This document shows positions 825 to 25,560 of a stretch of DNA of 30,260 nt, in pieces. Origin of the DNA: a virus. The DNA lies in the IMG/VR virus record IMGVR_UViG_3300029952_000098, positions 1 through 30,260 of that record, one strand, 5' to 3'. The translations under genes were made by a program, and so were the position numbers. Below the pieces are notes generated by a model. It was not told where the DNA came from and ran no database searches. It saw only the letters and a list, made by a program, of their open reading frames with translations. Position 1 is the stretch's first letter. Every line of letters starts with the position of its first letter.

Positions 825-2690
825 TTAATACTTAACGAATCTGTTCATGCGGACGCCTGCCGCCAAGTTGGCTGATCCAGCACCTGTTGACGTGGTGTTT
901 GCGGTGTACCCTATGAGCGGGCTTGATTGTCCCGATGATCCGTAGGAATTGCCGCCACTACCAAATGGCACCACATGTGAGTGAGAAGGCATTACACCGA
1001 GCGTTTGCGTGCCAAGATTGCCGCTTGCCATCGACGATACGTAATCGGGCGGATACCAGGGCATGCCAAACGTCGTAACGCCATCGCCAACGCCCCACGG
1101 TGCCACCACAATTGCCGCGCCAGTCCCGGCCGCTGTCGTTGGCAGGGATAGCCCGACAGTCGTTCCTGAAATCGAGCTGATGGTCGTTCCTGTTGCAATA
1201 CCTGTCCCGCTCATTGGATAACCTAATGCCATCAGCGCAGCATTTGCCACCAAGATGGATGACGCTCCATTGCTCCACGTCGCCGTCGTTTGGATTGTCA
1301 GCGCGTTGAACAAATTCACATAGGTTGAGCGAGGAAGATTGGTCTGAGCAATCGGACAAGCAAGGAAGCCATTTGGAGTTGCTGGAGTAGCAGATTCGAT
1401 GATCGTACCCGCTGGAGCCGAAAAGGCCACACCGGTCGCTGGATTGAGCAGTACCCACTTGCTCAGTGTCGCGTCCTGTTGCAGCGTAATCCAATGCCCA
1501 GCACCGGCAATGTCTCCCGGCACCAGTGCCAGACCGTTTCCCTTGACGATTGTCTGCGCGGGCACAGCCCCGGCGTTGGGCGTAAATGTTGGTGCGGTCG
1601 TCAGGTTGGCTGCCGTGGCGCGAACGGTCAGCTCGACAACGCCAGCGGCCAGCGTCGTGGACGTGATCGCTGGCAAGAAGCTGGCGGTAATGGCGTCTGG
1701 CGTGCCCGCTCCTTGTGCGGCAGAGTACAGATTCTCCTGGATTGCTGTCTGGATTTGTCCGAGTTGCGCGGCGTGCTGACTGGCTGATCCGGGGCCGACT
1801 TGCTGCGGGTCGATGTTGACGTTCGCACCATCGCCACGCAACTTAACAGCGCCTGGTACGATCGCGACTGGTGTACCTCCGCTTTCGAGAACTGACAATG
1901 CGTATGAGCCCGGCACGGTCTGATTGACCACGTACCATTTCTGGCTGGTGTTCGGGAACGTGATCTGGACGTTACCGGTGAGCGCTCCAGTGAAGAAAAT
2001 TATCGGCTTCGAGGACTGTGCAGCGGTCAGCGTTACATTGGCGTTTGTCAGCGCAACGGATGTCGAGCCGTAGAAGACGCCGGGGAGCCAGTTCGCGCCG
2101 CCCGTAGCCGTGATCGAAGTGCTGGAGACGGTTTCTGAGACGCTTACCATGTACGTACCAGTGCCGCCGGTACCGGTGCCGAGCGAAAGAATCTGTGTGC
2201 CAGCGGTAACGCCGGTTCCGGACAGCACTTGCCCGACTTGCACCGTGCCGGATGTGATGGCAGTAACGGTCAGCGTAGTCCCGGAAATTGAGCCAGTGAA
2301 TGACGCTGGCCCGGCATCTGGATCCGTGTTATTGTTGTCGGCAGTCGACCGCCAAAAACCCGTACCGTCTGCGCTCTGCAGCACGGCGCCATTCGGATAT
2401 CCGCCGATAGCATTTGCGAAGGTCGCGCCGTACACGGGCTGCCCGCCGACTTGCTCCCACTGAAGTCCGGCGGTGATCTGGTTCAGGATCCCATTCGTGT
2501 CAGCGCCCCAGGGCGGTGTACCGCCGGCATTAGTAGCCATGAACGTGACGGGAGGAAAGCCGTCACTCAGCGACGCAGCGCCGGGGGTTATGCCAATCTG
2601 CGAGCTTTGCGGGATCGCCCTGATATAGCCGACGCCGGCATTCGCCGCGAACGGGAGGGTAAAGAAGCTCGGTATTTGACTAGCTTGCAT
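825..2690 (-). CDS. Tail fibre protein with tail-collar-like C-terminus
   Basis: A 621-residue fibre. The N-terminus (residues 1-110) looks like a baseplate-attachment region. Residues about 131-198 are one copy of the Gly/Thr-rich repeat domain also found in three other virion proteins here. The C-terminus (about 430-621) reads [18 protein letters not shown], then [15 protein letters not shown], then MPSHSHVV and a final [10 protein letters not shown], an arrangement typical of phage tail-collar/receptor-binding fibres. A second short module ([20 protein letters not shown]) lies near residues 500-520. An ATG at 2690 is preferred over a TTG fifteen bases upstream because GGAG lies nine bases before the ATG. 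The gene follows the DUF2612 baseplate gene and precedes its probable chaperone. The exact receptor cannot be inferred. Confidence 0.85.
2096..2300 (-). repeat. Dispersed virion-surface domain, copy in the tail fibre
   Basis: This stretch encodes about 68 residues beginning [15 protein letters not shown] and containing [13 protein letters not shown] and [15 protein letters not shown]. It matches, nearly position by position at the protein level, segments of the baseplate J-like, sheath and decoration proteins. At DNA level the copies are recognisable but diverged, so this is an old or often exchanged module and not a recent duplication. Confidence 0.8.
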
Positions 2691-2713
2691 CGTTTGGTGC
2701 TCCAAAAAAGAAA

Positions 2714-2739
2714 GCGGCCCGACTCAGTGAGAGGGCCGC
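2714..2739 (-). terminator. Intrinsic terminator-like hairpin between DUF2612 and fibre genes
   Basis: On the minus strand a perfect 7-bp stem (GCGGCCC/GGGCCGC) with a 12-base loop is followed by TTTCTTTTTT. It lies 30 bp after the DUF2612 stop and 24 bp before the fibre ATG. The fibre gene's Shine-Dalgarno (GGAG) starts immediately after the T tract. Confidence 0.7.
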
Positions 2740-2768
2740 GTTTGAATGCGGGATAGATTGACTGCGGG

Positions 2769-3419
2769 TCAGGAAAAGCCGGCGAAGAACGTCCCCTGGT
2801 TAAATCCAGATACGCCTGGGCCTGCCTCGGCAAAACCAAAGACTGGAATCGGCACAATCATGATGTTCATAAGCACGCCGGTCGGCGGCGCAAAGGCCCC
2901 TGATTGCTTGAGAATCGCAATCTCGAATGACTGCAACGGGAACGTACAGACCAACGTCATCTGCATGTTGCCGTTGTCCATGACGTAGGCATTCCCCCTA
3001 CCAAGGAACAACTGCGTCAGGATCGTGTTGTACGTCTGGATATTGCTCTGCGAGATGTTCGCCAGTGCCTTAATGAGGATCAGCGCACGGAAGGCGTCAT
3101 CAGATAGCGTGTAATTTTGCGTCGCCAGCGGCCCTGAATAGAACGCACCCTGACCGAACGGAGCAGCAGAGACGATACCTGCCTCTTCGAAACCGAAGAA
3201 GGGTGCGCCGCCTGAAATCTCAAGCACATTTGAAACACCAACAATGCGACCCCATACCTGCAACCCGTAGCCTTTTGCGGTCTGAATGTTCCAAACGTTG
3301 TCGTAAAACGCATCGATGTTTGCCGAAGGATCGACAGCCGAATTGAAGCTGCTGATGAGTGACATCAGCGCAGGACTGTTGGCATACTGCGAAAGTACTG
3401 TATCCAGATAGTTCTGCAT
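2769..3419 (-). CDS. DUF2612-type baseplate protein
   Basis: A 216-residue protein beginning MQNYLDTVLSQYANSPAL with the segment AKGYGLQVWGRIVGVSN, the signature I associate with DUF2612 baseplate proteins, which occupy the place of P2 gpI after the J-like protein. The middle (DDAFRALILIKALANISQS) also fits this family, in which the protein bridges the baseplate wedge and the fibre. The ATG at 3419 follows the stop of the J-like gene directly (TGATATG), indicating translational coupling. The C-terminus ends in aromatic/Gly repeats (FGFAEAGPG, FNQGTFFAGFS), similar to its own middle segment (FGFEEAGIV). Confidence in the tail role is high. Confidence 0.8.
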   Translation of the reverse strand: MQNYLDTVLSQYANSPALMSLISSFNSAVDPSANIDAFYDNVWNIQTAKGYGLQVWGRIVGVSNVLEISGGAPFFGFEEAGIVSAAPFGQGAFYSGPLATQNYTLSDDAFRALILIKALANISQSNIQTYNTILTQLFLGRGNAYVMDNGNMQMTLVCTFPLQSFEIAILKQSGAFAPPTGVLMNIMIVPIPVFGFAEAGPGVSGFNQGTFFAGFS

Positions 3420-3420
3420 A

Positions 3421-4842
3421 TCAAGAGAACGTCACAGTGATATTACTGGCCGCGCACACGGGCTCTTGATTAATATTCATGAGGATCGCATTCGCGTTCG
3501 CAGCGCCTACGCCGATCTGGATCGAATAAATCGATACCCACGACCCCAGTGCAGCGATGTTGGCGTAGAACCTCGATGCGAACAGCCACGCCCCAACTCG
3601 TGCGCGCGACCCGCCATCGGCCCCTGTGAATGACTGCAACACGGCGGCCTGCACCAGGGCGATGGCATTCGACGGTACGCCGGGGTTGCTCTGCATGGCA
3701 ATGGTAAACAGTACTGTCGTGTTGCTCAGCGTCTGATATGTGACGTTGTATTGCGGCAGCGGCGGGCTGTATGGCTGGATGGCCGGACCTGGGTCTTGCA
3801 CCGTCACCGAGGTATTGCCGTTGTAATTGCACCCTGGTGATTTCTTCGTCCAGATTGCTTGACCGATGGCTTGTGCCTGGCCGCCGGAGACGCCGACATA
3901 TAGCGAATTTGGAGCAAGCAGTATGCCGCCTACCGCTGCTGTCAGCGACTCGGATGCGACGGACTGGCTCACGCCAACAACATACGTCCCGGCGCCACCT
4001 GTCCCGGTGCCGAGCGCGGTAATCAGAGTGCTTTGAGCGACCCCAGCTCCGACCACGGTCTGGCCGGCTGCCAGCGTTCCTGACGCCACCGCAGTAACGG
4101 TTAGCGTCGTGCCAGATATAGAGCCCGTGAAAACAGCCCCGCTTTGGACGGATAGCGGATTTTCAGTTGCGTAGGCATCTAGCACGCCCGATACGTCGAA
4201 CACCGCACCCAACACGGATGGCAGTGAGCCTTGCCCATTCAGCGCGACCGATTGCGAGCGGCGATATTCGAATTCCGAGCGCGTCTCGACGTTCTGGCCG
4301 ACTACGCCCGAGGCGCATGTGACTGAATCCCATCCGGGAATAGCTTGGTAGATTGATACGCCATTGGACGCAGGGACCGCGATAGGGCCGGTCGTCGTGC
4401 AGGCGAATGAGGCTGTAATCGAGCCGCCGACAGGAATTGTGACGGTGGCCGTACAGCTATACACATTGCCTGCGGAATCCTGAATCAACGCACTATTGGC
4501 GGGTATGACAACGCCGGCCAGGCCATTGCAAGGTATCTGCAAAACAGTTGGCAGGGCGGGATCGCGCTCGATGAAATAGATACGCCCGATCGCGTCCTGC
4601 ATGCGCCCGGCCGCGTACGCCGGATCGATGCCATTAGCAAGCGCCAGAAATTGATCGTTCTTGTCGCCGATGATCGCCGTTTGTGACGACGCCAATTGGC
4701 CCTGCGGCGCGGTCAGTGCGGGATTTAGATTGCTGCCGAGCGCCGCCTGCTGATCAGCCTGCACGCCGGCCAAGATCGCCGATTCAGCAGGCGCAATAAA
4801 TCCTGTCGCGCCAAAAACCGGAGCGGGTACGTTTGTCGTCAT
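3421..4842 (-). CDS. Baseplate J-like wedge protein with inserted repeat domain
   Basis: A 473-residue protein beginning [20 protein letters not shown], with [13 protein letters not shown] and [10 protein letters not shown], the typical N-terminus of Baseplate J/gp47-like proteins that build the baseplate wedge of contractile tails. The C-terminal half ([29 protein letters not shown]) also fits. Residues about 238-305 are a copy of the Gly/Thr-rich domain seen in fibre, sheath and decoration proteins; related J-like proteins usually continue without it, so it is probably an insertion. The ATG at 4842 starts the conserved sequence but has no clear Shine-Dalgarno: it lies 11 bases after the T tract of a strong hairpin. 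Neighbours are the wedge protein and DUF2612. Confidence 0.85.
3928..4131 (-). repeat. Dispersed virion-surface domain, copy in the baseplate J-like protein
   Basis: Encodes about 68 residues starting [15 protein letters not shown] and including [19 protein letters not shown]. It is the most diverged of the single copies ([10 protein letters not shown] replaces SGTGVTAGT). The insertion lies between two blocks of normal J-like sequence. Confidence 0.8.
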
Positions 4843-4858
4843 TGTTTGGGCGTAAAAA

Positions 4859-4876
4859 AACCGCCAGAAGGCGGTT
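4859..4876 (-). terminator. Intrinsic terminator-like hairpin between wedge and J-like genes
   Basis: On the minus strand AACCGCC-ttct-GGCGGTT is a perfect 7-bp stem with a 4-base loop followed by an unbroken T run. It lies 20 bp after the wedge gene stop (4896). The ATG of the J-like gene is 17 bp beyond the hairpin. Confidence 0.75.
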
Positions 4877-4895
4877 ATATTTGAGTGATATGGCG

Positions 4896-5246
4896 CTAAA
4901 AGCTCGCTACGGAAACAGTCCCATTCGTGTCAGTGACCTGCACTTGCCCTGATACAGCACGGTTAGTGACGCCGGAGATAAAAACTTGCGCACTGACTAC
5001 GCCGGGAACGGTCATTGCTGCTGCAACCAGATTCGATTTCAACAATGAGAGAGGCGGCAACTGACCCAGTAATTCAGTCCAATATGGCACTCCCTGCGTA
5101 GTGTCGTAATACACCTCACCAAGAAATGTCCGGATTGCACTCGCAGCATCTTGCGCCAGTGAATACGGCTCTGACGCCATCGCGATATTGCCTGATGCAT
5201 CCAACGCTAAATCCCAACTAGCCGGGTCGAGGTAAAGGGTATCCAT
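4896..5246 (-). CDS. Baseplate wedge protein, gp25/W-like
   Basis: A 116-residue protein beginning [20 protein letters not shown] with the segment [20 protein letters not shown] and the closing [16 protein letters not shown]. Small size, the RTFLGE(V/C) motif and a place directly before the J-like gene match the gp25/gpW family, which nucleates sheath assembly at the baseplate. The ATG at 5246 has AGGA four bases upstream. The gene lies 21 bp after the spike gene. I am fairly sure of the wedge role; the exact Pfam family is from memory. Confidence 0.8.
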
Positions 5247-5267
5247 GCAATCCTAAAAATAATGCAG

Positions 5268-6032
5268 TTAGTTGACGGAATTCGTATTGCTTGTACCGCT
5301 CTGGACGCCGCCATGCGTATGCGTATCATCAACCCGCTTGCCGTTGGCAAATACAGAGCCGATAAATTGCACAACACCAGTGATAACGGCCGATGCTGCG
5401 CCTCCACCGCTTCCGGTCATACCACTCAGCCAAGATAACAATCCTTGAATAATTACGGCTCCACTGAAATTCGATTGCGGCGAATTCACGGTAAATGATG
5501 TTGAAGCATCTGCCTCGATCAGCGGCGCTTGAAGCGTGATCTTTGTCGGCGAGACCATTGCGATACCACTCGATGAAAATGCGATGTACTGCGTCGGCAC
5601 GCCGTTGAGCATTCCGCCGAAATAAACCGCATCCGCCATATTGAACATACGCCGGCTGCCGGGGTTCGCTTGCCCCTTGTTGGCTATCACACTTGAGATA
5701 TCCCGGTCAGCGAATCCAGCCCAGCCGATGTCGCCTACCTGTGGATCAATAATGATCGCGTTTGCGCCACCCTGAAGCCGGAAGTATGGGCAGTGATAAA
5801 TCGTCCCGTGCGGCACAGCATTACCGACACCGTCCACCTGATTGACTAGCAGCAGCAGGTCGACAAAACCGACAGGAGAGATGCCGCCGGCATTGGTAAC
5901 GCCCATCACCTTGACCATCTGCATGGTCCGGACGCGGGCTAGGATCGACCAGACTATGAACGACTGAGCGTTGAAATCTGAGTCGGCCGATGTCGGGGTC
6001 TGCTGTCCGTTATAACCGTTATTGCTAAGCAT
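5268..6032 (-). CDS. Tail spike/membrane-puncturing protein, Gp138-N-like
   Basis: A 254-residue protein. The N-terminal part (MLSNNGYNGQQ, ARVRTMQMVKVMGVTNAG, GVGNAVPHGTIYHCPYFR, DPQVGDIGWAGFADRD) looks like the OB-fold of Gp138/gpV-type spikes. A beta-rich segment follows, and the end carries DDTHTHGGVQSG; a His-x-His pair near the C-terminus is known from spike tips that hold an iron ion. The start is ATG at 6032, overlapping the hub gene by 8 bp; the upstream extension to 6125 lies entirely within the hub gene and does not look like spike sequence. It would form the trimeric needle under the hub that pierces the outer membrane on contraction. Confidence 0.85.
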   Translation of the reverse strand: MLSNNGYNGQQTPTSADSDFNAQSFIVWSILARVRTMQMVKVMGVTNAGGISPVGFVDLLLLVNQVDGVGNAVPHGTIYHCPYFRLQGGANAIIIDPQVGDIGWAGFADRDISSVIANKGQANPGSRRMFNMADAVYFGGMLNGVPTQYIAFSSSGIAMVSPTKITLQAPLIEADASTSFTVNSPQSNFSGAVIIQGLLSWLSGMTGSGGGAASAVITGVVQFIGSVFANGKRVDDTHTHGGVQSGTSNTNSVN

Positions 6033-6915
6033 TGAATGGCGATCCCGAAAATGACGTTTCCCACTGACCGTTTGGCGTCTCGCTTTCGAGATCATGCGCA
6101 ATGCCAAACATAATGAACGTGCCATTGGCGAAGGGTAAGCTGCTTTGCACTTTGCAACTCCCGCCGATCCTCAATTGTGGATTGAATAGTGTCTTAACTG
6201 CGATGATGCCACCTGAACCGGCATTCGATGGGTAGCCGATCATGCCCGTACCAGGCGATACGAGCGGGATCAAACCGTCACGACTTCCGCCCTTCGGCCA
6301 GATCGCTAGGATGTTGTTGTCAAGCGTCCAGTTGATGTTTGCTGCGGTGGCGCAATCCTCCATTTGCTGTTTAGGTGAACCATGGAAGTATGGTGTCGAG
6401 AGCTTCGCCGTGATGCCGTTATTCTCGAACGCATATCCATTTTGCGTGGCGAGGTTTCGCATGATCGTTGCCACGTCAGCTACACCAGGAAAGCTCAGCG
6501 CTGCCGTCGGCTTGACCGCTTCGAGTAGGCCGCTATGAGCCGCTATATGCAGGGTCGAGTCAGGTGCGCTATTCATGTCCACCGCCGCTAGCAAAACTTG
6601 CCCCTGAAAGATTGCGGTCATACCAGCGACAGCATCGCCTGCCTCGATGATTATCTGGTAAAAGCGGGTCGTCACTTGCCCGTTGTTGAGGCGACTCACG
6701 GTCGATAGCTGGTTCATCAGCGATGGCGTTAGTCCATGCACAATCACCGAGGCCTCACCCATCGAAGGGGTGCCAGCATTCGCAATGGTGGCCTGGATGC
6801 GCAGGCCGGATACCACCACTTGGTCATAGTTTCCTTCGACGAAGTTATATTGAACTCCACTCGTGTCCCTGCCTAGCCTAAAGGTAAGAGTAATAGCACG
6901 CTGAACGAAGCTCAT
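6025..6915 (-). CDS. Baseplate hub protein
   Basis: A 296-residue protein beginning MSFVQRAITLTFRLGRDTSG, with IVHGLTPSLMNQLSTVSR, HIAAHSGLLEAVKPTA and a beta-rich C-terminus ending with GIAHDLESETPNGQWETSF. The pattern (HGL...MNQLST, QGQVLLA, DNNILAIWP) fits phage hub proteins of the gp27/gpD type that join the tube to the spike. The start overlaps the preceding gene's stop (TGATG), and its own end overlaps the spike start, so plug, hub and spike are translationally coupled. Order and length support the assignment; the exact family is not certain. Confidence 0.75.
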   Translation of the reverse strand: MSFVQRAITLTFRLGRDTSGVQYNFVEGNYDQVVVSGLRIQATIANAGTPSMGEASVIVHGLTPSLMNQLSTVSRLNNGQVTTRFYQIIIEAGDAVAGMTAIFQGQVLLAAVDMNSAPDSTLHIAAHSGLLEAVKPTAALSFPGVADVATIMRNLATQNGYAFENNGITAKLSTPYFHGSPKQQMEDCATAANINWTLDNNILAIWPKGGSRDGLIPLVSPGTGMIGYPSNAGSGGIIAVKTLFNPQLRIGGSCKVQSSLPFANGTFIMFGIAHDLESETPNGQWETSFSGSPFNA

Positions 6916-7226
6916 CAGCCCACCCCATTAAGATCAGTGGTCTCTAAATAGCAGAACAGATAGCGCGTCCCGAGCCCAGGACTGGACGGGTCAAGGCTTC
7001 CCTGAACATCCTGAAACATCAAATCTCCCGTGAAGCCGAGATAGAGGCTACGCACGATCCTATTCAGGTTCTGGCAAATCACGCCGCCAATCAGCAGCGA
7101 ACCATTGACGTACAGGTCGCAATAGAATCCCGTCGAATTCTGGTATAGATCGATATTGCAGTTCTGCCCCGCTAGGGCGACTGAAATCGTCTGCGAGTAG
7201 GTGTCGGATATTGGGATAATTTGCAT
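6915..7226 (-). CDS. Baseplate plug-like protein (Pam3 gp18-type domain)
   Basis: A 103-residue protein beginning MQIIPISDTYSQTISVALAGQ, with FYCDLYVNGSLLIGGVICQN and a C-terminal RYLFCYLETTDLNG. Small proteins of this pattern, placed directly before the hub gene, are known in simple myovirus baseplates as the plug protein (cyanophage Pam3 gp18 and relatives); this is from memory. It ends TGATG with the hub gene. Upstream on the minus strand is a plus-strand secreted-protein gene (7303-7638), which separates it from the Dit-like gene. The start ATG has only a weak Shine-Dalgarno-like sequence. Confidence 0.65.
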   Translation of the reverse strand: MQIIPISDTYSQTISVALAGQNCNIDLYQNSTGFYCDLYVNGSLLIGGVICQNLNRIVRSLYLGFTGDLMFQDVQGSLDPSSPGLGTRYLFCYLETTDLNGVG

Positions 7227-7241
7227 TCTTACGAGACCTGG

Positions 7242-7269
7242 TTAGACAAGAGATGTGTCGTGCTAATAT
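7242..7269 (+). promoter_or_regulatory. Sigma70-type promoter for the plus-strand secreted-protein gene
   Basis: TTAGAC (7242-7247) and TAATAT (7264-7269) are separated by 16 bp, and the -10 is preceded by TG-C, an extended -10 signature. It lies 33 bp before the ATG at 7303, leaving room for the AAAGGA ribosome binding site. An independent promoter is what one expects of a lysogenically expressed cargo (moron) gene. Confidence 0.55.
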
Positions 7270-7302
7270 TTGACTGAAAAACCACAAAATAAAGGAAAAC
7301 CT

Positions 7303-7638
7303 ATGCTGAGAAAACTCGTTTCAATTCTGCTTCTGCTTCCGTTGGCCGCGCATGCGCAGGGCATAAGCGGGGACAAGATGCGCGAATGTGGGCAGAAGGC
7401 GTGGCTATTCAGCATGGCGGCGCAGTACCGCGACTCCCGACTTTCACCGCAGGAGTTCATGAAGTTCGTTGAGCATAACCATCCCAACCCCTTTGTACTC
7501 GATGGCGCCTACATCAAGAAAGTAACCAACGCCGTTTATTTCGATGACCGGTTTGCTGGCGCAAGTTCGAGTGACCTATACCAGTCCATGGCTGATGCAT
7601 GCATCAACCCTGCGCCGCAATACCAGCCTCTCAAGTAG
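7303..7638 (+). CDS. Secreted small protein of unknown function, moron candidate
   Basis: A 111-residue protein transcribed against the surrounding tail genes. The N-terminus MLRKLVSILLLLPLAAHAQG is a classic Sec signal peptide with a predicted cut after AHA. The mature part has two Cys (KMRECGQKA and ADACINP) that could pair in the periplasm, and a helical middle (AWLFSMAAQYRDSRLSPQEF). Small two-Cys exported proteins of this pattern are seen in proteobacteria without known function. The start is ATG at 7303, with AAAGGA suitably upstream. It has its own promoter and ends 2 bp from the stop of the convergent Dit-like gene. Likely roles, by analogy with other morons, are altering the lysogen's envelope or blocking superinfection; this is inference. 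Confidence 0.8.
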   Translation: MLRKLVSILLLLPLAAHAQGISGDKMRECGQKAWLFSMAAQYRDSRLSPQEFMKFVEHNHPNPFVLDGAYIKKVTNAVYFDDRFAGASSSDLYQSMADACINPAPQYQPLK

Positions 7639-7640
7639 TG

Positions 7641-8240
7641 CTATGTCGATGCTGATGCAGCCGCAGACTGTGCCGTGGTTGGCTTCTGCGGTTGCACCGC
7701 CCCGCCCTGTACGGGGTCAGCCCCGCTAGGTGCTGCCGTATTGGTGAAGGATGGATTCGGTGCGACACGGATTTCCTGAAGCGCTACATCCACCGTCAGC
7801 AGCCCGACGCCATTGGTTGATGTGCGCCGAAAATCGAAGCGGATGATCGTCACGTTCGCAATAATATGGCCCTCGGGCATCCCTATATTGAAAGTTTTGA
7901 GTGACTTCGCCAGCGTGGATAGCGTAATCAGGAACTGATAACGCTGCTTATCAGTTCCACCCTTGGTCATCCGGATATTGGTTTCGAGCGGGAACATCAC
8001 CTTGTTGTAAGACTGAAATGCACCTTGCTCCTGAGGGGCATTTGACACTGACCACTCGCGCTTTGCGTCCAAGCTAATTATGGAGTCGGGCTTGATGGCA
8101 ATAGTCCCATCTGCATTAAATATGCCCCACTTCGGACCGGCGAACATATTCAGAACTATTTGCGCATCGGCCACCAACAGCGCAATAGTATTCGTGACTC
8201 TGGAGACCTTCCCGAGCAGCGGCGGAATTCCGATTGTCAT
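7641..8240 (-). CDS. Dit-like baseplate/tail protein
   Basis: A 199-residue protein beginning MTIGIPPLLGKVSRVTNTIA, with DAKREWSVSNAPQEQGAF, YNKVMFPLETNIRMTKGG and TVDVALQEIRVAPN. These match my recollection of Dit-like proteins that follow the tape measure in myoviruses with DUF3383 sheaths. The C-terminal 30 residues are low-complexity (Ala, Ser, Thr, Gln, Pro). The start overlaps the tape-measure stop (TAATG). The stop at 7641 is 2 bp from the stop of the convergent plus-strand moron. Confidence in the tail/baseplate role is good; the specific family is less certain. Confidence 0.7.
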   Translation of the reverse strand: MTIGIPPLLGKVSRVTNTIALLVADAQIVLNMFAGPKWGIFNADGTIAIKPDSIISLDAKREWSVSNAPQEQGAFQSYNKVMFPLETNIRMTKGGTDKQRYQFLITLSTLAKSLKTFNIGMPEGHIIANVTIIRFDFRRTSTNGVGLLTVDVALQEIRVAPNPSFTNTAAPSGADPVQGGAVQPQKPTTAQSAAASAST

Positions 8241-10222: not shown

Positions 10223-10503
10223 GATTCCTCGCTCTTATTTGCAACCTGCTTGTTATGCGCATCAACGGTGATGATTTCGAGAAAATCGTAGACATCTTCT
10301 GCGCCGTAGATCGTATCCAGTTCGACACGTGTTGCAAGGCGCGACGAGATGACGGCGCCTATCGTGCGCGGGACATTTACGTATTCAGCATAGTCGCGCC
10401 CGTCACTGGCAGTGAAGCCGAGATCGAGCCGGCGACGGGCATAGTAAAATTGACGTGAAGAAAGAATAATTCTTTCCGCAGGCGCAGACGGGTCGAGATT
10501 TCC
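10219..10503 (-). CDS. Second-frame tail chaperone extension, probably made by -1 frameshift
   Basis: An open frame of 94 codons without ATG, GTG or TTG start, in the -1 frame relative to the tail chaperone gene. It overlaps that gene from 10503 to 10377 and continues to a TGA (10221-10219) that overlaps the tape-measure ATG. The part beyond the chaperone stop reads as a normal protein (YVNVPRTIGAVISSRLATRV, ELDTIYGAEDVYDFLEIITV). This is the classic gpG/gpGT layout, where a frameshift makes a longer chaperone. No perfect X-XXY-YYZ heptamer is present in the overlap; T-rich sites near 10446-10470 are the nearest candidates. Initiation at an ATT codon is an alternative. That it codes is likely; the mechanism is unresolved. 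Confidence 0.65.
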   Translation of the reverse strand, partial: GNLDPSAPAERIILSSRQFYYARRRLDLGFTASDGRDYAEYVNVPRTIGAVISSRLATRVELDTIYGAEDVYDFLEIITVDAHNKQVANKSEES

Positions 10504-10847
10504 TCAATGTCGTCCTCGACCAATGGCCCCAGCCCCCCGTACCCGCGCTTGATGGTAGGCCGAGCTGGGTCAGGCACGAACGAGACCATGGAGAACATCT
10601 CGTCAAGCAATGGCTCCGCATCCTCGAACGCCATACCGCCGAGTGCTTTGATGCCCAGCGCTGCAACGCCAGCCAAGCCGCCAGTGGCAATATCATCAGG
10701 AACTTCCATGCCGGACTTCGCCATCGCCAGCAATGCGCGGGCCGCCCACTTCTCGGATTGCGTGGCCGGCATCTCATTGATAACGAACATTTTTCCGTTA
10801 TCGCGGCCCTCAGTCTCGATCACGATCGCGTGTTGTTTACGGGCCAT
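10377..10847 (-). CDS. Tail assembly chaperone (short form)
   Basis: A 156-residue protein beginning MARKQHAIVIETEGRDNGKM, with NEMPATQSEKWAARALLAMA and PLVEDDIEEISTRLRLRKEL. It lies between the tube and the tape measure, where lambda gpG-type chaperones are encoded, and a second-frame ORF extends beyond its stop. These proteins coat the tape measure during tail assembly and are absent from the mature virion. The start is ATG at 10847, overlapping the tube stop by one base (TAATG), with GGAG upstream; the longer start at 10877 lies inside the tube gene. The last 25 residues (MPVAGSISASLPVTGATMLN) are low-complexity. Confidence 0.75.
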   Translation of the reverse strand: MARKQHAIVIETEGRDNGKMFVINEMPATQSEKWAARALLAMAKSGMEVPDDIATGGLAGVAALGIKALGGMAFEDAEPLLDEMFSMVSFVPDPARPTIKRGYGGLGPLVEDDIEEISTRLRLRKELFFLHVNFTMPVAGSISASLPVTGATMLNT

Positions 10848-11278
10848 TAGATCGGCGCTCCTATAACGGCTTGCCATTTGATCTGAAACTTGCGTGGTTG
10901 CAGCACTTTCTTGCCGTCAGCAAATGGCGCGTAATTACTAAGCGCGCCATTGGTAAGGGCATATGATCGACCGACGCCTGGCTGCGAAAGAACGCCAAAG
11001 CCGGCAAACGCGTCCTGCGCTGCCTCTTCGGCGGCATACCATGCCTCGAAAAATGCAATGGATGGGCTATCCGCCTGCAGCGTCACATTCATGACCTTGA
11101 TTTGCGGAATCCAGCCCATAGAAAGTTTCCCATCGGCGCCCATCTGGACTTCTTTCGTATCGACCGCCTCCATTGAGTACATGTCATCCTGCGAGAAGCC
11201 CTGCAATTGCTGCGGAACCGTGTAGAGCCCGGCGACGCCAATCAACAGAACGCTATTTGCTGAAGTAATTGAAGACAT
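10847..11278 (-). CDS. Tail tube protein (DUF3277-type)
   Basis: A 143-residue protein beginning MSSITSANSVLLIGVAGLYT, with VPQQLQGFSQDDMYSMEAV, VQMGADGKLSMGWIPQIKVM and FFEAWYAAEEAA. The pattern (QGF..D......V......MGADGKLS.G) is what I recall of DUF3277, the tube protein paired with DUF3383 sheaths. Tube proteins polymerise as hexameric rings inside the sheath. The gene lies 13 bp after the sheath stop and overlaps the chaperone start by one base. Size and place support the call. Confidence 0.8.
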   Translation of the reverse strand: MSSITSANSVLLIGVAGLYTVPQQLQGFSQDDMYSMEAVDTKEVQMGADGKLSMGWIPQIKVMNVTLQADSPSIAFFEAWYAAEEAAQDAFAGFGVLSQPGVGRSYALTNGALSNYAPFADGKKVLQPRKFQIKWQAVIGAPI

Positions 11279-11291
11279 TTATAACCCCTGT

Positions 11292-13019
11292 TTATTGCAC
11301 TTCGATGGATGCCAGATTGAGCGACTGGATGGAGCCGCCATCGCAATACCAGAATGTCATCGGTGGCGACGTGCGAGCGCCGCGCACCTGAGCGGTTGCG
11401 GGCAGGATCTGCAGATACCAACCTTGGTTGGCGAGCGTGGTTGCGATGTTGGTGCCAGCGGCGTTGTTGACCTCGGCGATTTGCGCCGCTGAAAGTGCCA
11501 CCCCGCCACTGAAGGCGCCAAAGTTCAGGCCGGCGGTGATCGGATCCATACAGGAAGCCCGCACCAGCGCATAGCCGACGGCGTCGAATGGCAGGCTCTT
11601 GACACTAAACAGCAGCGTCATCATTGCCAACTGGAAGGCGCTGTTTAGCCAGATCTGATTGACGTAGCTATCCATCCAGGCGTATGGGCCGCTGATCGAT
11701 CCAGGGGAAATTCCCTGAAACTGCTGATTGGCAGTCGCCCATGCGCCGTAGAAGTTGTAGCCGTTTGCCCGGAGATTGGCGGCGACAGTCTGGTTGGTAA
11801 CGCTCGGGACAATCCCACTCTGCGACTTATTAGCCAGAGTGATGCGTCCATTCTCTTCCGTGAAATCGATCGATGCGACGGAACCCGATGCAAACGCAGC
11901 GAGACCATACGGAATTGAAGGCACCCATTCCAGGTGCGTTCCGGAGATCCCTGCAGCCTTGATGAGTTGACCCAGCGATGCCGCGGCATTGTTCGATGCA
12001 GTCGGCGTGACGTCGGTGTCTTCGCAGACGTAGACATAGCGGTTGTTTTGCTGGCCGGCCCATGTCGAGAAGAGCAGCTTCTGGACATTGCCAGATCCAT
12101 TGTCCGGGTCGAACAGCGTGAAGAACGTGGCCCAGTTGGTCGTCTGCGCGACAATGTTGGTCATGAACGTGCCGGGGACCGCTGCCGCCGCGCCTTGCGA
12201 CAGGACTGCGCCGGTTACCGAGGTAAGTAGCAGCGAAGCCGACAGCGTTCCTGTGGCAAACGCCATGGTAGATTGCACGCCAGTGCTTCCCGAGTTGATA
12301 CAGTAGGCACTGGATACGCTGTCATAGGCTACGGTCAGCGCAGCAGCTGTCGCGGTAATGGTCGTGCTGGTCGCTGTCTGCGTGGCGCTGACGGTATAGG
12401 TCCCAGTACCGCCGGTGCCGGTCAGGAAGCCTGTAATTTTCGTGCCCGCTGTTACGCCGGTACCGCTCAGGACATTGCCCACCTGGAGCGCGCCTGAGAT
12501 CACCGCAGTCACCGTGAGCGTGGTCCCCGCGATCGAGCCCGTCACCGATCCAGCGGTCGGCAGCGTTGCATTCAAGCCGGTCTGGAGTAGCGCGGCACCG
12601 GACGAGAAACTGGTCGCGGAACTCAGATTGACCGAGGCTGCGTTGTACGGGTAGCCATCGGCCACGACCGACAGCGAACCCGAAAGACCCTGCAGTTGCG
12701 CGAGCGTCATCGCCGACAATGAGCCGCCACGAACATACGCCGATACGGCCGACTGGTTATATTGCGCGAACAGCATCGCGCCCGGCAGCACGTTTGAGCC
12801 CTGGAAGCCGGCGAAGTAGATCGCTGCAGCGGCGGCTTCAGGCGAGGCTGGGCCATAATAGTTGTCCACTGCCGTGTCAGACGGAAACGATAGAAAGCCG
12901 CCGATTGGTGTGCGCGCGCTAGTTGATAGGGCGAGGCCGATGAGATCCAGCGCCGATCCCCCAGCCGAAATCACGCTCGGGACAACGCCAACCAGGTCAG
13001 ATGCTGGAATACTCGACAT
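11292..13019 (-). CDS. Tail sheath protein (DUF3383-type) with inserted repeat domain
   Basis: A 575-residue protein. The N-terminus ([52 protein letters not shown]) and the C-terminal half ([58 protein letters not shown]) are typical of DUF3383 sheath proteins. Residues about 159-226 are a copy of the Gly/Thr-rich domain, flanked by normal sheath sequence, so the domain probably projects from the outer surface of the sheath. The ATG at 13019 has GGAG upstream, directly after the T tract of a hairpin. It precedes the tube gene, the standard order. The sheath contracts to drive the tube through the envelope. Confidence 0.85.
12342..12545 (-). repeat. Dispersed virion-surface domain, copy in the sheath
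   Basis: Encodes about 68 residues starting [15 protein letters not shown] and including [15 protein letters not shown] and [15 protein letters not shown]. Among the single copies it is closest to the third decoration-protein copy ([19 protein letters not shown]). An insertion in a helical sheath would be displayed in many copies along the tail. Confidence 0.8.
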
Positions 13020-13041
13020 ATATGCTCCAAAAATAGAAAAA

Positions 13042-13089
13042 CCGCCTTGAGCGGCGGCTTAGAAATGAAAAACCCGGCACGGGCCGGGT
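13042..13089 (-). terminator. Tandem intrinsic terminator-like hairpins between tail terminator-like and sheath genes
   Basis: Read on the minus strand, ACCCGGC-loop-GCCGGGT (13089-13072; 7 bp, 4-base loop) is followed by TTTTT, and CCGCC-loop-GGCGG (13057-13042) is followed by TTTTTC. Both are between the stop at 13120 and the sheath ATG at 13019, in the sense orientation. Two good terminators directly before the most abundant tail protein gene is unusual. Confidence 0.75.
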
Positions 13090-13119
13090 CGGTTCAATCG
13101 GGTAGAAATATCAAAATTA

Positions 13120-13653
13120 TTATTGCAGCGTCTCACCGATATCTATGGACACTTCGGTGAAGAAATCTTGCGGGACTGTGACCACTGGATTGCAGTGCAT
13201 CACGGCATCGATCGTCCAGCGAGTTTCGACCTGCTGTTCGCCGTTTAAAAATGGGGCCTGCCTTGGGTCGCTGGCATATAGCGGCGTAACATCAAATCCA
13301 GACGCAGAAAATGCCGTAGTCGCAAATTCATCTCGAAACAGTGTGACGATGATCTGCGCGTTGTCGGCGCTGGCCGGACCATGCACGTCTACCTGGATCG
13401 TAACTTTCGTCGGCTGCAATGATGCTTTCGTTCCCGGATTTACTGGATGACCATCGGTGTACGTATCGATATTCGTAGAAAGTCGCTCGCGTAGCGTCGA
13501 TGTCATCACAACAAAGTCGGAGCCTTTCGGCTCTGCTACGCGATTTACTTGCCCCTTCACTACCTCGACACCGGCTGGCAGCACTGCCAACAAGAACGAA
13601 CGCAATGCAGCCAATGTCTGACTTTCGGTAAGACTTAGCGTCGGCGTCGTCAT
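13120..13653 (-). CDS. Neck/tail terminator-like protein
   Basis: A 177-residue protein beginning MTTPTLSLTESQTLAALRSF with LPAGVEVVKGQVNRVAEPKG, FVVMTSTLRERLSTNIDTY, and MHCNPVVTVPQDFFTEVSI. It lies between a head-closure-like gene and the sheath, where contractile phages encode the tail terminator. The motif of a short N-terminal helix, then GQ.NRVAEP.G.DF, is one I associate with phage neck-terminator proteins (gp12-like). It overlaps the previous stop (ATGA at 13653-13650). It would cap the finished tail and dock it to the head. The family name is from memory. Confidence 0.65.
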   Translation of the reverse strand: MTTPTLSLTESQTLAALRSFLLAVLPAGVEVVKGQVNRVAEPKGSDFVVMTSTLRERLSTNIDTYTDGHPVNPGTKASLQPTKVTIQVDVHGPASADNAQIIVTLFRDEFATTAFSASGFDVTPLYASDPRQAPFLNGEQQVETRWTIDAVMHCNPVVTVPQDFFTEVSIDIGETLQ

Positions 13654-14033
13654 GATGCTAACTGCCTCGTTACGGCCACTTTCACCCAGCCATCAGAACT
13701 CGCCCAATTCTCCAAAACCAAAGCGACAAGCCAGATCGATCCATCTGGCAGTGCGATCAGATCGCCGCCCTTGCTGTCCGGACGTGCAACCCCCTCCCAA
13801 TTACCATTGATGTACATCGCACGGCGCTCGCCCTGGATATTCAGGGAATCGATCTGGGCGATGTCGTTGTATTGCAGTGCTTGGGCCTGGATCTGCACTG
13901 ATACGGGCGCGGCATAGCTAGGCACACGCGAACCATCATCGCTCGTCGCGTAGCCAGTTGATGCCTGGATCGTGGCGATCACCCATGGATTGATCGCAGC
14001 TACACATGGTCCAACGATGTTGTGTAGATTCAT
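13650..14033 (-). CDS. Neck protein, uncharacterised
   Basis: A 127-residue protein beginning [20 protein letters not shown], with SVQIQAQALQYNDIAQIDSL, RRAMYINGNWEGVARPDSKG and SIWLVALVLENWASSDGWVK. It lies between the gp10-like gene and the tail terminator-like gene, overlapping both by 4 bp (ATGA). Proteins with this size, order and QAQ.L...D..... pattern are found in related phages as head-closure or neck components, without an established function that I can name with certainty. No membrane segment or enzyme motif is visible. Confidence 0.55.
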   Translation of the reverse strand: MNLHNIVGPCVAAINPWVIATIQASTGYATSDDGSRVPSYAAPVSVQIQAQALQYNDIAQIDSLNIQGERRAMYINGNWEGVARPDSKGGDLIALPDGSIWLVALVLENWASSDGWVKVAVTRQLAS

Positions 14034-14485
14034 GACTCTTTTACCTTGTTGTCAACCGAGTTCAGCATATGACCCGATTCGCGCAGCGGCGCATCAAATC
14101 CTTTGCGTGCGATGGTCGATTTGGCATTGCCTGGCGTCGTGAAATCACGTATTGATTCCCGCAACTGATTGGCAATGTGCTCCCCCATAAGTCCAAGCGC
14201 TTTGCCAGCGTCATACTCATTGACGACCAGTAACTTACCTACTGCATCACCCCAATCCGGACTATCCTTGGCAATCATGTTGCGAAAATACGGCCGTGGA
14301 GGCGTGCCGTTCGCAGGAGCTCCAAACTCATCGATCGCCGCAATCATCGCAACCGATGTCCCATCAGGGTAAGTAGCACCTTCAAGAAAGCCCACCTCTA
14401 CCGACGCGGCTTTACTCACTTTTTTTGCAAGCTCGGCTAATGCAGCCTGAAGTTTCTCGCCGCCTGAAAATGACTTAGCTACCAT
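14030..14485 (-). CDS. HK97 gp10-like neck/tail completion protein
   Basis: A 151-residue protein beginning [20 protein letters not shown], with [40 protein letters not shown] and [20 protein letters not shown]. The AxxxEFGxxxxxxPPRPFxR-type motif is the hallmark of HK97 gp10-like and related neck proteins. The start is ATG at 14485, overlapping the DUF4054 gene by 7 bp; the longer start at 14593 lies in DUF4054 coding sequence and adds unlikely sequence. The role is probably at the head-tail joint or in tail completion. Confidence 0.7.
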
Positions 14486-14907
14486 CGTCTGTATGGGTCC
14501 ATGTTGCGCACTGGGCCTGGCACGTAGCGCATCGTTCGATAAGCGGCAGTTGCCGCCCAGAATGCGGCGCCGTACTTGGTTTGCTGCCACCATTGCACAG
14601 TGCCGGCCGGATAGTCGTTTTGCGTCTGTACGGATACGCTGCCTTCGGATGCATTGCTGATGCGACCGACCAGTGGTGAGGATGGCTGCCCATTCAGGGG
14701 CGCATTCAGCGCGGCGATATGGGCAGTCACCATATTCAACAACGTCGCACGCTGCACCAGATCGCGGATGATGCTGGCAGGCGTGTTGTCGCAGTACAAC
14801 TGTGCTTCGTTGAAATACTGCTGCGCCAGCGGTTGAACCACCGATTCATACAGTTCCGGGTACCGGATCGCCCAGGTTCCGTAATTGAAAACAACGACGT
14901 TATCCAT
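14479..14907 (-). CDS. Head-tail adaptor (DUF4054-type)
   Basis: A 142-residue protein beginning [20 protein letters not shown], with [56 protein letters not shown] and [20 protein letters not shown]. This is the pattern of DUF4054 proteins: an FRxxYPEF-like N-terminus, a central helical pair, a [13 protein letters not shown] segment and a final tyrosine-rich stretch. They are predicted connector proteins attached to the portal. It follows a conserved hypothetical gene by 3 bp. Start and family are well supported. Confidence 0.85.
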
Positions 14908-14910
14908 GAA

Positions 14911-15387
14911 TTACGCAGCGCGACGCAGGTCCGAGGTTTCGACACCCTTTGGCAACTTGGTAGGGTCGAGGCGCTCCAAGCCTGATTTGACATCATCTTT
15001 TTCGGCAGCTTCAGCCTTGATACCGGCACTATCGCCGTGAGCGAAAACCAGCCCATTAACGATGAAGTCGGCGTATTTATTTTGATCAAGCCATTCTTCC
15101 CAGAACGCTTTTGGAATGTCGTACGTGACTGCGTATGCGCCGATCAGTTGTTGGTGCGGCCCCTTGTTTTGGGCATAGGAATTGCCGGTAAGCACAAAGC
15201 TCGGCGAGTTCCTGCGTTGCTCTGCGATTTTGAACTCTCGCACGCCGCCGCCCATGACAGGCTCGCTGCCCTTCTTAAAATCGTACAGTCGGATGATCAA
15301 GTCCATCGGCAACTTCGAAGCAACCATGACGGTAGCACCGCCGGTGGCCGGCGTTTTGTTCGGAGAGATTGTTTTTTGATCGGACAT
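14911..15387 (-). CDS. Conserved phage head-region protein of unknown function
   Basis: A 158-residue protein beginning MSDQKTISPNKTPATGGATV, with VASKLPMDLIIRLYDFKKG, NSYAQNKGPHQQLIGAYAVT and DIPKAFWEEWLDQNKYADFI. It sits between the major capsid gene and the DUF4054 adaptor gene. I recall proteins with P.DL.LR.YD and PK.FW..WL.QN.....V at this place in related myoviruses, always uncharacterised. The ATG at 15387 (AAGGA upstream) is preferred over 15489, since the extension overlaps the capsid gene and a hairpin. It might be a minor capsid or connector component; no enzyme motif is visible. Confidence 0.7.
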   Translation of the reverse strand: MSDQKTISPNKTPATGGATVMVASKLPMDLIIRLYDFKKGSEPVMGGGVREFKIAEQRRNSPSFVLTGNSYAQNKGPHQQLIGAYAVTYDIPKAFWEEWLDQNKYADFIVNGLVFAHGDSAGIKAEAAEKDDVKSGLERLDPTKLPKGVETSDLRRAA

Positions 15388-15416
15388 GGTTTTTATCCTT
15401 CGATTGGAAATAAAAA

Positions 15417-15435
15417 CGCCCGGATTTACCGGGCG
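15417..15435 (-). terminator. Intrinsic terminator-like hairpin after the major capsid gene
   Basis: On the minus strand CGCCCGG-taaat-CCGGGCG is a perfect 7-bp stem with a 5-base loop followed by TTTTTAT. It lies 25 bp after the capsid stop. A terminator here would raise capsid message relative to the genes downstream. Confidence 0.75.
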
Positions 15436-15460
15436 CTTTGCGGTGTATCGGATATCTGAA

Positions 15461-16561
15461 TTACACGCCGACCATTGTCGACATGGCATACGGCTGACGC
15501 AGAATGAAGCCTGAGCTGCCTTGGGTGAACTTTTGCTTGTAAGCGGACAGTTCGCGAACGACAGGTCCGGCGCGCAACTTGGAGTTGAACGAGCAGTAAC
15601 CAGAATCTTGTCCGGCCGCTTGCGGCGCCCATAGTTGAACGATTTCGCCGGCGGCAGAGCCTTGTGGGTTCTGCGCAGTCAGCGCACCGTATTGAATTGC
15701 CGTCTTCACTTCCAGATTCGGGAAGTTCAATTTCAGCAACGCTGCCACGTTCACGTTAAACGTGTTTGTAGCCGTCATCGCACCTTCACTGCGCGGCGAC
15801 ATACCCAAGACAAATTTCGACTTCGTATTCAGCAGGCCCGACGACTGGTTGATCGACTGAATCGCCAGGCTCTGAATATCGGCGAAGATTTCGTTTGCCG
15901 TAGCGTTGATCGAAGTGCCGTTCAACCAGGCCAGACCGCCGGCAGCTTTTGGTGTTGGGGCAATCGCTGGATACAACGAAGGATCATTCAGTGCGCCGTA
16001 ATTTTGCAGGCCGGCGACGCCACGGAAGTAAGTCAGGTTACCGAACTTGTTGAGGCCGTCAATCGCAGCTTCTTTCTGTTCTGCAACGTAACCGATCTTT
16101 GCCAGTCCAACACGTTCGATTTCCAGATCGCCGTATTCTGTGACCGTTTGGTACAGATAAGGCTGGCGTTCTGGAAAGTTGGTATTGATGCCGGCGCGGC
16201 CGTTGTTGTTATGGTCGCCGTAGCTGGATACCTCGTACGTACGTTCCACGACCGGGAAGATCAGAGTCGAAGTTGTCCATTCGCCCTTTTGCTTCTCGCC
16301 GAAGATTTCAGCAGCCTCATTCGGCGCGGTCAGCACGCGCAGAATATCCGGATCCGTGAAAAAGGTCAGATACGCCGGAATACCCGAGTTCGGCGTGGTT
16401 ACGAGTGCGGGTTGCGCATCCATCGCCAAATCGATTCGCTCCTTCCACTCCGGACGGCAAAACATTTGCGCGCCGGGGAAGTCGATGCCCCAGCGGGAGC
16501 GGTGATAGTCGAGCGCAGCACGTTGATCCTGCGGCGACATGTCGTATGCTAATTTAGGCAT
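15461..16561 (-). CDS. Major capsid protein (DUF2184-type)
   Basis: A 366-residue protein beginning MPKLAYDMSPQDQRAALDYH, with NSGIPAYLTFFTDPDILRVL, KGEWTTSTLIFPVVERTYEV, QTVTEYGDLEIERVGLAKIG, GVAGLQNYGALNDPSLYPAI and a C-terminal SGFILRQPYAMSTMVGV. This matches the DUF2184 family of HK97-fold major capsid proteins. The ATG at 16561 has AAGGAA upstream. It follows the decoration-like gene and is followed by a strong hairpin. Family and role are well supported by sequence pattern and order. Confidence 0.85.
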   Translation of the reverse strand: MPKLAYDMSPQDQRAALDYHRSRWGIDFPGAQMFCRPEWKERIDLAMDAQPALVTTPNSGIPAYLTFFTDPDILRVLTAPNEAAEIFGEKQKGEWTTSTLIFPVVERTYEVSSYGDHNNNGRAGINTNFPERQPYLYQTVTEYGDLEIERVGLAKIGYVAEQKEAAIDGLNKFGNLTYFRGVAGLQNYGALNDPSLYPAIAPTPKAAGGLAWLNGTSINATANEIFADIQSLAIQSINQSSGLLNTKSKFVLGMSPRSEGAMTATNTFNVNVAALLKLNFPNLEVKTAIQYGALTAQNPQGSAAGEIVQLWAPQAAGQDSGYCSFNSKLRAGPVVRELSAYKQKFTQGSSGFILRQPYAMSTMVGV

Positions 16562-16595
16562 GATTCTATTTCCTTAAAATTGGAGTTGGCGAGGA

Positions 16596-17714
16596 TTAAC
16601 CGTTGAGCCAAGTTGTCATCTTCACCAGCTCGCCCGGCGCACCGATTGAGGAGGCGACCCATTTGGTTTCAGTGCCGGCTGCGACAATAATCGTGGTCGA
16701 TGTTGCGGTCTGGCTGATCGATACTGCGTAAGTACCGGTGCCGCCGGTACCGGTGATAAAGCCGGTAATAGTTGTACCTGCAGTGACGCCCGAGCCGCTG
16801 ATTGTGTCACCGACCGCCAAGGCGCCCGAGCCGACTGCCGAGACGGTCAATACGCCGCCCGATGCGGTCAGCGTGCCGCTGGCGAACGTCTGCGATACAG
16901 ACACCGCATAGGTGCCAGTACCGCCTGCGCCCGTTCCATAGCCGGTAATCACTGTACCGGCAGCAGCGCCAGAAAGTGTCTGCCCAATGGCGAGGACGCC
17001 GCTTGTTACAGCCGATACCGTCAGGCCACCACCGGAAGCAGTGATGGTTTCCGAAGCGATGTTTTGCGACACGGATACCGAATAAGTGCCGACACCACCG
17101 GCGGTTCCTGTCAGTTGCGACAGAATGGTTGTCGCCGGATCAACGTTCGTGCCGGACAGCGCTTGGCCAGCCGCCAAGACCGTGCCAGCCGCAATAGCGG
17201 AGACGGTCAGGACTTGACCGGCAATAGAGCCAGTCACCGAGTTGAGCGCGATGGCACCGGTAACGACAGTCGCCGCAATCGAACCGGTTACGCCGGCCGC
17301 CGCCGGTGGCGTACCAGTCGGGCCGAACGAGACGGATCCGTTTGCGTTATTCGCGTAGACCTTGTTGCCGATCGCCGAGGTAGTTGAGCCTGAGTTCAGA
17401 ACCCAGAAGCCGCCGGCATTGAACAGTGTGCACGGAAAACCGGCTGGAATAACCAGCGAGGCTTCGGCCAGATATGCAGTAATCAGCGCTTGCTGATCAC
17501 GGAAAACAAAGCCAGCAGGAGCGCCAGCGCCAAAGCTATTGGCGATCTTGTTGGTGAGTGTGTCAGCCCATGCGAACGAGCCGATTGTCAGACCACTCGA
17601 ACCCGCTACAAAACCACCTTGACCAGCATCGACAACACTACGCGGATTGGCATCGCAAAAGTCACCAGCTACTGCTGGTGCCGCTTGCACATTTACTTGA
17701 CGGGGAAATCCCAT
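16596..17714 (-). CDS. Capsid decoration/cement-like protein with three tandem repeat domains
   Basis: A 372-residue protein. The N-terminal part ([57 protein letters not shown]) resembles structural cement proteins encoded beside DUF2184 capsid genes. Residues 160-229, 230-288 and 289-346 are three consecutive Gly/Thr-rich domains; the last two carry the core [10 protein letters not shown] short C-terminal tail ([20 protein letters not shown]) closes the fold. The C-terminal KWxA......GELxKM motif continues the N-terminal fold, so the three domains look like an insertion near its end and probably protrude from the capsid. The ATG at 17714 has AGGAG six bases upstream. The cement assignment is inferred from place and N-terminus; the repeats are directly visible. 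Confidence 0.75.
16677..17237 (-). repeat. Three tandem copies of the dispersed virion-surface domain in the decoration protein
   Basis: Copy A spans 17028-17237, copy B 16851-17027 and copy C 16677-16850. Shared landmarks are LTVSA, then GQ/GD-x-LSG or ISG, then a TG-rich stretch ending in GTYxVSxSQ. Copy A is more diverged ([17 protein letters not shown]); B and C are closest to each other. B lacks a few residues in the SGTGVTAG segment (SGAAAG). Tandem arrangement suggests local duplication after acquisition. Confidence 0.85.
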
Positions 17715-25224: not shown

Positions 25225-25278
25225 ATAATCAAAAATGATTACAAATAGCTTGATGATGCAAACATTTTTGGTTACACT
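25225..25278 (+). promoter_or_regulatory. Promoter/operator region of hicAB
   Basis: TTGATG (25250-25255) and TACACT (25273-25278) are spaced 17 bp, giving a fair sigma70 promoter. A perfect -10 TATAAT also occurs at 25225-25230 without a convincing -35. A palindrome TAATCA-aaaa-TGATTA (25226-25241) overlaps that TATAAT and is a candidate HicB operator; autoregulation by the HicB HTH domain is common in the family. Which promoter is used is not decided. Confidence 0.5.
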
Positions 25279-25312
25279 GTACTTACTGAATCAAACAACG
25301 AAAGGAGGTGCG

Positions 25313-25509: not shown

Positions 25510-25560
25510 CCGCAACAGCTTCACCGCATCGATTACCTGATAGCAGATAAAGGATTAACT

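What the first reader, a model, noticed from the sequence alone, without database searches (positions are those of the whole stretch)
2096..17237. One Gly/Thr-rich domain shared by four different virion proteins
A 60-70-residue module (LTVTAV or LTVSAV, then GQ[10 protein letters not shown], then [10 protein letters not shown]-x-VS) occurs once in the tail fibre (2096-2300), once in the baseplate J-like protein (3928-4131), once in the sheath (12342-12545) and three times in the decoration-like protein (16677-17237). It interrupts recognisable family sequence in the sheath and the J-like protein. Phage surface modules such as Ig-like domains are known to move between virion proteins; here one module decorates head, tail shaft, baseplate and fibre, which would coat the whole virion with one type of patch, perhaps for binding glycans or surfaces. 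DNA copies are diverged, so protein-level selection or repeated exchange has kept them alike.
Basis: partly seen in the sequence, partly recalled or inferred. Interest (0 to 1): 0.75.

Follow-up and report, generated by a model that had tools for sequence, protein, structure and literature searches.

The report
Roving beta-barrel module on phage virions
This phage carries the same small, undescribed protein module plugged into four of its outer-shell proteins (head decoration, tail sheath, baseplate and fibre), and relatives gain, lose and relocate it like an add-on part, which points to a shared surface function that nobody has yet tested.

Summary
Six copies of one ~67-residue module sit in four virion proteins at the stated coordinates. 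The module has no Pfam or NCBIfam family. AlphaFold predicts a compact beta-barrel, closest to a chain from Arthrobacter phage Bridgette and to elongation-factor domain-2 barrels, not an Ig sandwich. In the sheath model it stands as a separate domain in a loop. Relatives show it is an insert. Sheath lengths step through medians of 498, 571, 645 and 705 aa for 0-3 modules, with at least 16 count changes on the sheath tree. The J-like protein takes it at two sites, and the probable tail terminator, empty here, carries it in over half of relatives. Major capsid, tube, tape-measure, hub, spike and portal proteins never carry it in this phage group. Unrelated phages carry it in P22-type neck proteins and even a capsid protein. 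A secreted Bacteroidota protein has it too. Same-site copies are under purifying selection (dN/dS mostly 0.04-0.2). Best reading: a promiscuous plug-in accessory barrel for exposed virion loops, behaving like phage Ig-like domains but apparently of another fold. Whether it binds surfaces or stabilises the particle is untested.

The parts
2097..2300 (-). Module copy in the tail fibre protein, after its ~130-residue N-terminal domain
   Evidence: present in 7 of 52 homologous fibres
825..2705 (-). Tail fibre protein (phrog_12796), host of the copy above
3931..4131 (-). Module copy in the baseplate J-like protein, mid-protein site
3421..4842 (-). Baseplate J-like protein (phrog_6, baseplate wedge)
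   Evidence: 46 of 62 homologues carry 1-3 modules, at a middle or a C-terminal site
12345..12545 (-). Module copy in the tail sheath; modelled as a separate barrel (sheath residues 157-224) between helix 138-149 and strand 229-233
11292..13019 (-). Tail sheath, DUF3383/phrog_205, same fold as E217, Pa193 and XM1 sheaths (Z 30-34)
13120..13653 (-). Probable tail terminator (phrog_1876; by synteny and size the XM1 gp5 counterpart); empty here, but 49 of 89 homologues carry a module
   Evidence: assignment to terminator is inference from synteny with XM1
17040..17237 (-). First of three tandem modules in the decoration protein
16857..17042 (-). Second tandem module in the decoration protein
16677..16868 (-). 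Third tandem module in the decoration protein
16596..17714 (-). Minor capsid (decoration) protein, XM1 gp53 family in residues 7-146, modules appended C-terminally

Best explanation
The segment is one small, independently folding beta-barrel domain that phages plug into exposed loops or ends of external virion proteins. Shown: a single homologous domain; a separate fold in the models; gain, loss and change of site between relatives; restriction to a few outer proteins within this phage group; purifying selection. Inferred: its long first and last strands lie side by side, so both termini emerge together and the domain can be inserted without disturbing the host fold. It spreads by occasional recombination between phages, perhaps helped by its own conserved end motifs, and is then inherited mainly in place. 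Inferred function: many copies on head, tail shaft, baseplate and fibre give weak, multivalent contact with surfaces or polysaccharides around the host, as proposed for phage Ig-like domains. Particle stabilisation is the main alternative. The confidence given is for the promiscuous plug-in domain; for the adhesive function alone I would say about 0.5.
For: Fold: module alone pLDDT 84 with strands 6-24, 32-35, 42-47, 55-73; the same four elements at 157-175, 183-185, 193-198, 206-224 in the sheath model, pLDDT 88.8. Insertion: sheath lengths have medians 498/571/645/705 aa for 0/1/2/3 modules, with at least 16 count changes and 6 presence/absence changes on the core tree. The J protein is used at two sites, L091 at both. 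Occupancy: sheath 75/91, terminator 49/89, J 46/62, decoration 0-3, fibre 7/52, against none in MCP (60 homologues), tube (87), tape measure (80), hub (67), spike (66), portal (26). Recent gain or loss: L049 and L015 head-closure proteins are 96% identical outside modules yet carry 4 and 2 modules, the breakpoint lying at the conserved SQTV end motif. Other lineages: P22-type Hc3 and Ad3 neck proteins, a capsid-protease fusion, BFVD capsid, gp10, Stf and tip-J proteins at 34-60% identity. Selection: module dN/dS mostly 0.04-0.2, like or below the rest of the protein. Outside phages: five tandem copies in a 2296-aa Bacteroidota protein with GEVED, fn3 and a secretion sorting tail.
Against: No binding, virion or deletion data exist. 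The surface position in the assembled particle is inferred from homologous structures, not modelled in an assembly. Low dN/dS does not by itself show adhesion and would fit plain fold maintenance. Nearest-neighbour data show mainly inheritance in place, so movement is occasional. Alignments of 67 residues give weak trees.
Confidence: 0.8

Rival explanations
1. The module is a cementing or stabilising domain: neighbouring copies on decoration trimers, sheath rings and neck touch each other and strengthen the particle, rather than binding anything outside.
For: Strong purifying selection with no sign of diversification; hosts include decoration, adaptor, head-closure and terminator proteins, all of which hold particles together.
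Against: Relatives do without it at each site; copies in a fibre or at the C-terminus of the J protein have no obvious neighbour; tandem copies occur in a secreted bacterial protein.
Confidence: 0.3
2. It is an Ig-like domain, that is, an ordinary member of the known set of promiscuous phage Ig-like domains.
For: Same style of spread among virion proteins as described for Ig-like domains (PMC9230969).
Against: The model's best matches are a phage Bridgette chain and EF-Tu/IF2/SelB domain-2 barrels (Z 6-7.5), with no Ig-like entry among the top rows; none of 99 members matches an Ig family in Pfam.
Confidence: 0.05
3. It is a low-complexity Gly/Thr-rich stretch that arose independently in each protein by convergence or composition.
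For: Gly/Thr/Ser/Val-rich letters; BLAST's low-complexity filter appears to hide much of it.
Against: 19 invariant positions across copies, no hit in shuffled ORFs, a confident shared fold, E down to 6e-20 between different proteins.
Confidence: 0.01
4. It is a selfish DNA cassette that inserts in frame and gives no benefit to the virion.
For: Repeated gain and loss, including between 96%-identical proteins.
Against: In this group almost only certain virion proteins carry it although other genes are equally available; low dN/dS. Mobility genes and repeats at the ends were not searched for systematically.
Confidence: 0.08

Closest known systems
Phage Ig-like domains (Fraser et al. 2006, as cited in PMC9230969)
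   Same: Small all-beta accessory domains that spread horizontally among head, tail and fibre proteins and are dispensable for the host fold; proposed weak carbohydrate contact
   Different: Different predicted fold (beta-barrel, not beta-sandwich); no Pfam or NCBIfam family; four different proteins of one particle carry the same family, with 0-3 copies each in relatives
XM1 sheath gp6 insertion domain (PMC10457771)
   Same: An extra domain inserted into the N-terminal domain of the same sheath type
   Different: Described there as part of the XM1 sheath and similar to FliD domain D3; the present module is a further insert that close relatives lack
XM1 gp53 / TW1-type decoration protein
   Same: The first 146 residues of the window's decoration protein belong to this family
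   Different: XM1 gp53 (about 160 aa, PMC10457771) has no such C-terminal modules; here there are three
PDB 8eci chain 1 (Arthrobacter phage Bridgette)
   Same: Best structural match to the module, Z 7.5 over 73 residues, 25% identity
   Different: Only a middling score; a 124-aa chain of its own rather than an insert; common ancestry not shown
PHROG 21413 and PHROG 38233
   Same: Both contain this module as an internal segment
   Different: They are whole-protein clusters (unknown function and tail fibre), not a description of the domain

Membership tests
Phage Ig-like domain | Ig-type Greek-key beta-sandwich fold | tested here: inconclusive
   Top structural matches are a phage Bridgette chain and elongation-factor domain-2 barrels; no Ig-like entry in the rows shown, but scores are middling
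Phage Ig-like domain | Sequence match to an Ig-like Pfam family | tested here: not met
   None of 99 members matches one at E 0.1
Phage Ig-like domain | Horizontal spread among different virion proteins | tested here: met
   this is shared behaviour, not shared ancestry
DUF3383 tail sheath (host protein) | Pfam PF11863 above its cut-off | tested here: met
   379 bits against cut-off 34.9; fold matches E217, Pa193 and XM1 sheaths
XM1 gp53 minor capsid protein (host protein) | Pfam PF23982 above its cut-off | tested here: met
   83.6 bits against cut-off 27, residues 7-146
Translation-factor domain-2-type beta-barrel | Same barrel topology | tested here: inconclusive
   Z 6-7 to EF-Tu, SelB and IF2 domain 2, a range that may reflect only a common arrangement
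Carbohydrate-binding module | Measured glycan binding | not testable with these tools
   No binding data; no CBM family among the Pfam matches

The most novel reading that the evidence does not exclude
An undescribed beta-barrel family serves as a general plug-in surface patch of viral particles: present on heads, necks, sheaths, baseplates and fibres of unrelated tailed phages, and also in giant-virus collagen-repeat proteins (Indivirus, BFVD match at 51% identity), so that a whole virion is coated by one kind of contact site with a common ligand or a shared mechanical role.
Probability: 0.35. Interest if true: 0.8.

Novelty: new variant of a known kind. Interest (0 to 1): 0.66.

Why it matters
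Ig-like domains are the standard example of promiscuous accessory domains on phages. Here a second, apparently unrelated fold does the same thing on a larger scale: one particle uses it in four proteins, its relatives supply a natural series of 0, 1, 2 and 3 copies at fixed sites, and other virus lineages use it on necks and capsids. That series makes the long-open question 'what are accessory virion domains for?' directly testable, by comparing closely related proteins with different copy numbers. The stepped sheath lengths also show how freely a contractile sheath tolerates extra domains in this loop.

Tried and rejected
tblastn of the module in named phage genomes found one record only; the low-complexity filter probably masks the module, so this is not evidence of rarity. 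A weaker look-alike in the fibre C-terminus ('[22 protein letters not shown]') was compared by profile: 22% probability, inconclusive, not counted as a seventh copy. PDB sequence searches with one copy or the 99-member profile gave only chance-level hits. Within-phage homogenisation of copies was tested and not seen. L224, first scored as a sheath without a module, has a diverged one and was recounted. Junction DNA was read for one close pair only (L049/L015); other with/without pairs are too diverged to show target duplications. A table of occupancy undercounts the decoration protein, since some copies were matched only through their neighbour, the capsid gene (column 'other').

Full report
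What is there. The window is a 30,260-base virus record holding the structural genes of a contractile-tailed phage, minus strand. A single copy of the module finds six places and no more: tail fibre 2097-2300, J-like baseplate protein 3931-4131, sheath 12345-12542, decoration protein three times in 16677-17237, E 1e-32 to 1e-12. The six copies share 19 invariant columns. A profile of them found nothing in 17,300 shuffled ORFs.

What it is. The module is not described in Pfam or NCBIfam: among 99 members the best Pfam match is E 0.006 and the best NCBIfam match E 0.01, scattered over unrelated families. It appears only as an internal stretch of two whole-protein clusters, PHROG 21413 and 38233. 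AlphaFold with a 99-row alignment gives an all-beta domain (pLDDT 84) with two long strands, 6-24 and 55-73, and two shorter ones. The best PDB match is a 124-aa chain of an Arthrobacter phage Bridgette entry, followed by domain 2 of EF-Tu, SelB and IF2; Z values are 6-7.5, so the fold class is likely but kinship is open. No Ig-like entry appears among the rows shown. In the full sheath model (pLDDT 88.8) the same elements form a separate domain at residues 157-224, while the rest of the protein matches the E217, Pa193 and XM1 sheaths at Z 30-34.

Is it an insert? Yes. Sheaths of relatives align on both sides of the module, and L092, L099, L101 and L104 simply lack it. Over 90 sheaths whose start could be placed, lengths are stepped: medians 498, 571, 645 and 705 aa for 0, 1, 2 and 3 modules, with ranges that do not overlap. 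On a tree of the sheath without the module residues the count changes at least 16 times and presence/absence at least 6 times. The J-like protein takes the module at a middle site (window, L089, L092, L101) or a C-terminal site (L090, L094, L102, L106), and L091 has both; Acetobacter phage phiAO1 and Pantoea phage PA-1 have neither. The gene next to the sheath, empty in the window, carries it in 49 of 89 relatives; by synteny and size it is the counterpart of the XM1 tail terminator gp5 (PMC10457771). The decoration protein has 0-3 copies after its gp53-type domain.

Where it is not. In 26 to 87 homologues each, the portal, major capsid, tube, tape-measure, hub and spike proteins of this phage group never carry it. 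Sheath, terminator, J protein, decoration and fibre do. A few cases occur in other genes (two homologues in each of three genes). This is a rule for this group only: elsewhere the module is found in P22-type head-closure Hc3 and adaptor Ad3 proteins, a phrog_3287 virion structural protein, a capsid-protease fusion in a Methylovulum contig, and in BFVD models of an HK97-type capsid protein, gp10, Stf, tip protein J and a giant-virus collagen-repeat protein.

How it moves and what keeps it. Of 262 distinct modules in the myophage group, 182 have their nearest relative in the same gene of another phage, 77 in a different gene of another phage, and 3 in the same phage. So copies are mainly inherited in place, with occasional jumps between genes and phages, and little homogenisation inside a genome. 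One recent event is visible: L049 and L015 head-closure proteins are 96% identical outside the modules but have four and two; the two extra modules are not duplicates of their neighbours and enter at the conserved SQTV end motif. That fits recombination at the module's own conserved ends (inference from one case). Same-site module pairs have dN/dS mostly 0.04-0.2, like or below the rest of the protein, so the module is maintained rather than drifting or racing.

Function. Not shown. The hosts are mostly outward-facing proteins. The copy number would be high: the decoration protein alone would give over a thousand modules on a T=7 head like that of XM1 (inference). Five tandem copies occur in a secreted Bacteroidota protein with GEVED, fn3 and a secretion sorting tail. 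These points favour weak multivalent contact with surfaces. Strong purifying selection with no diversification argues against a specific, arms-race receptor contact and leaves particle stabilisation as the main rival. A Rhodopila MAG (Acetobacteraceae) carries a prophage-like locus of this group with modules in decoration, terminator and sheath (L145), which hints at the host.

Relation to known things. It works like the promiscuous phage Ig-like domains discussed for sheaths (PMC9230969) but fails their sequence test and probably their fold test. I therefore file it as a new variant of a known kind: a second, undescribed family of promiscuous accessory domains on virions. I found no paper that describes it in the searches made, which cover only openly licensed papers; databases not held here (InterPro beyond Pfam and NCBIfam, ECOD) were not checked.

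Noticed in passing
window 17749-19590 (-): The head maturation protease (DUF2213) carries an N-terminal NUDIX hydrolase domain, residues 14-135, in one ORF; an odd fusion for a capsid protease.
   Followed up: no
window 25235-25980 (+): Two small ORFs that look like a HicA/HicB toxin-antitoxin pair, by eye from the translations; not searched.
   Followed up: no
window 7270-7638 (+): A 122-aa ORF with a signal-peptide-like start on the opposite strand inside the tail operon; possibly a moron gene.
   Followed up: no
BFVD A0A1V0SCQ2 and A0A1V0SDM6: Collagen-repeat proteins of the giant virus Indivirus ILV1 match the module fold at 43-51% identity, so the module may occur outside viruses of bacteria.
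   Followed up: no
L138:3913-10800 (+): A 2296-aa Bacteroidota protein with GEVED, fn3 and a secretion sorting domain has five tandem copies of the module.
   Followed up: partly
window 1074-1271 (-), fibre C-terminal part: A second, weaker look-alike motif ([22 protein letters not shown]); a profile comparison was inconclusive.
   Followed up: partly
L128, L130, L132 (Sphingopyxis flava): One bacterial genome has three loci on three contigs, each encoding a module-bearing protein of 445-533 aa.
   Followed up: no
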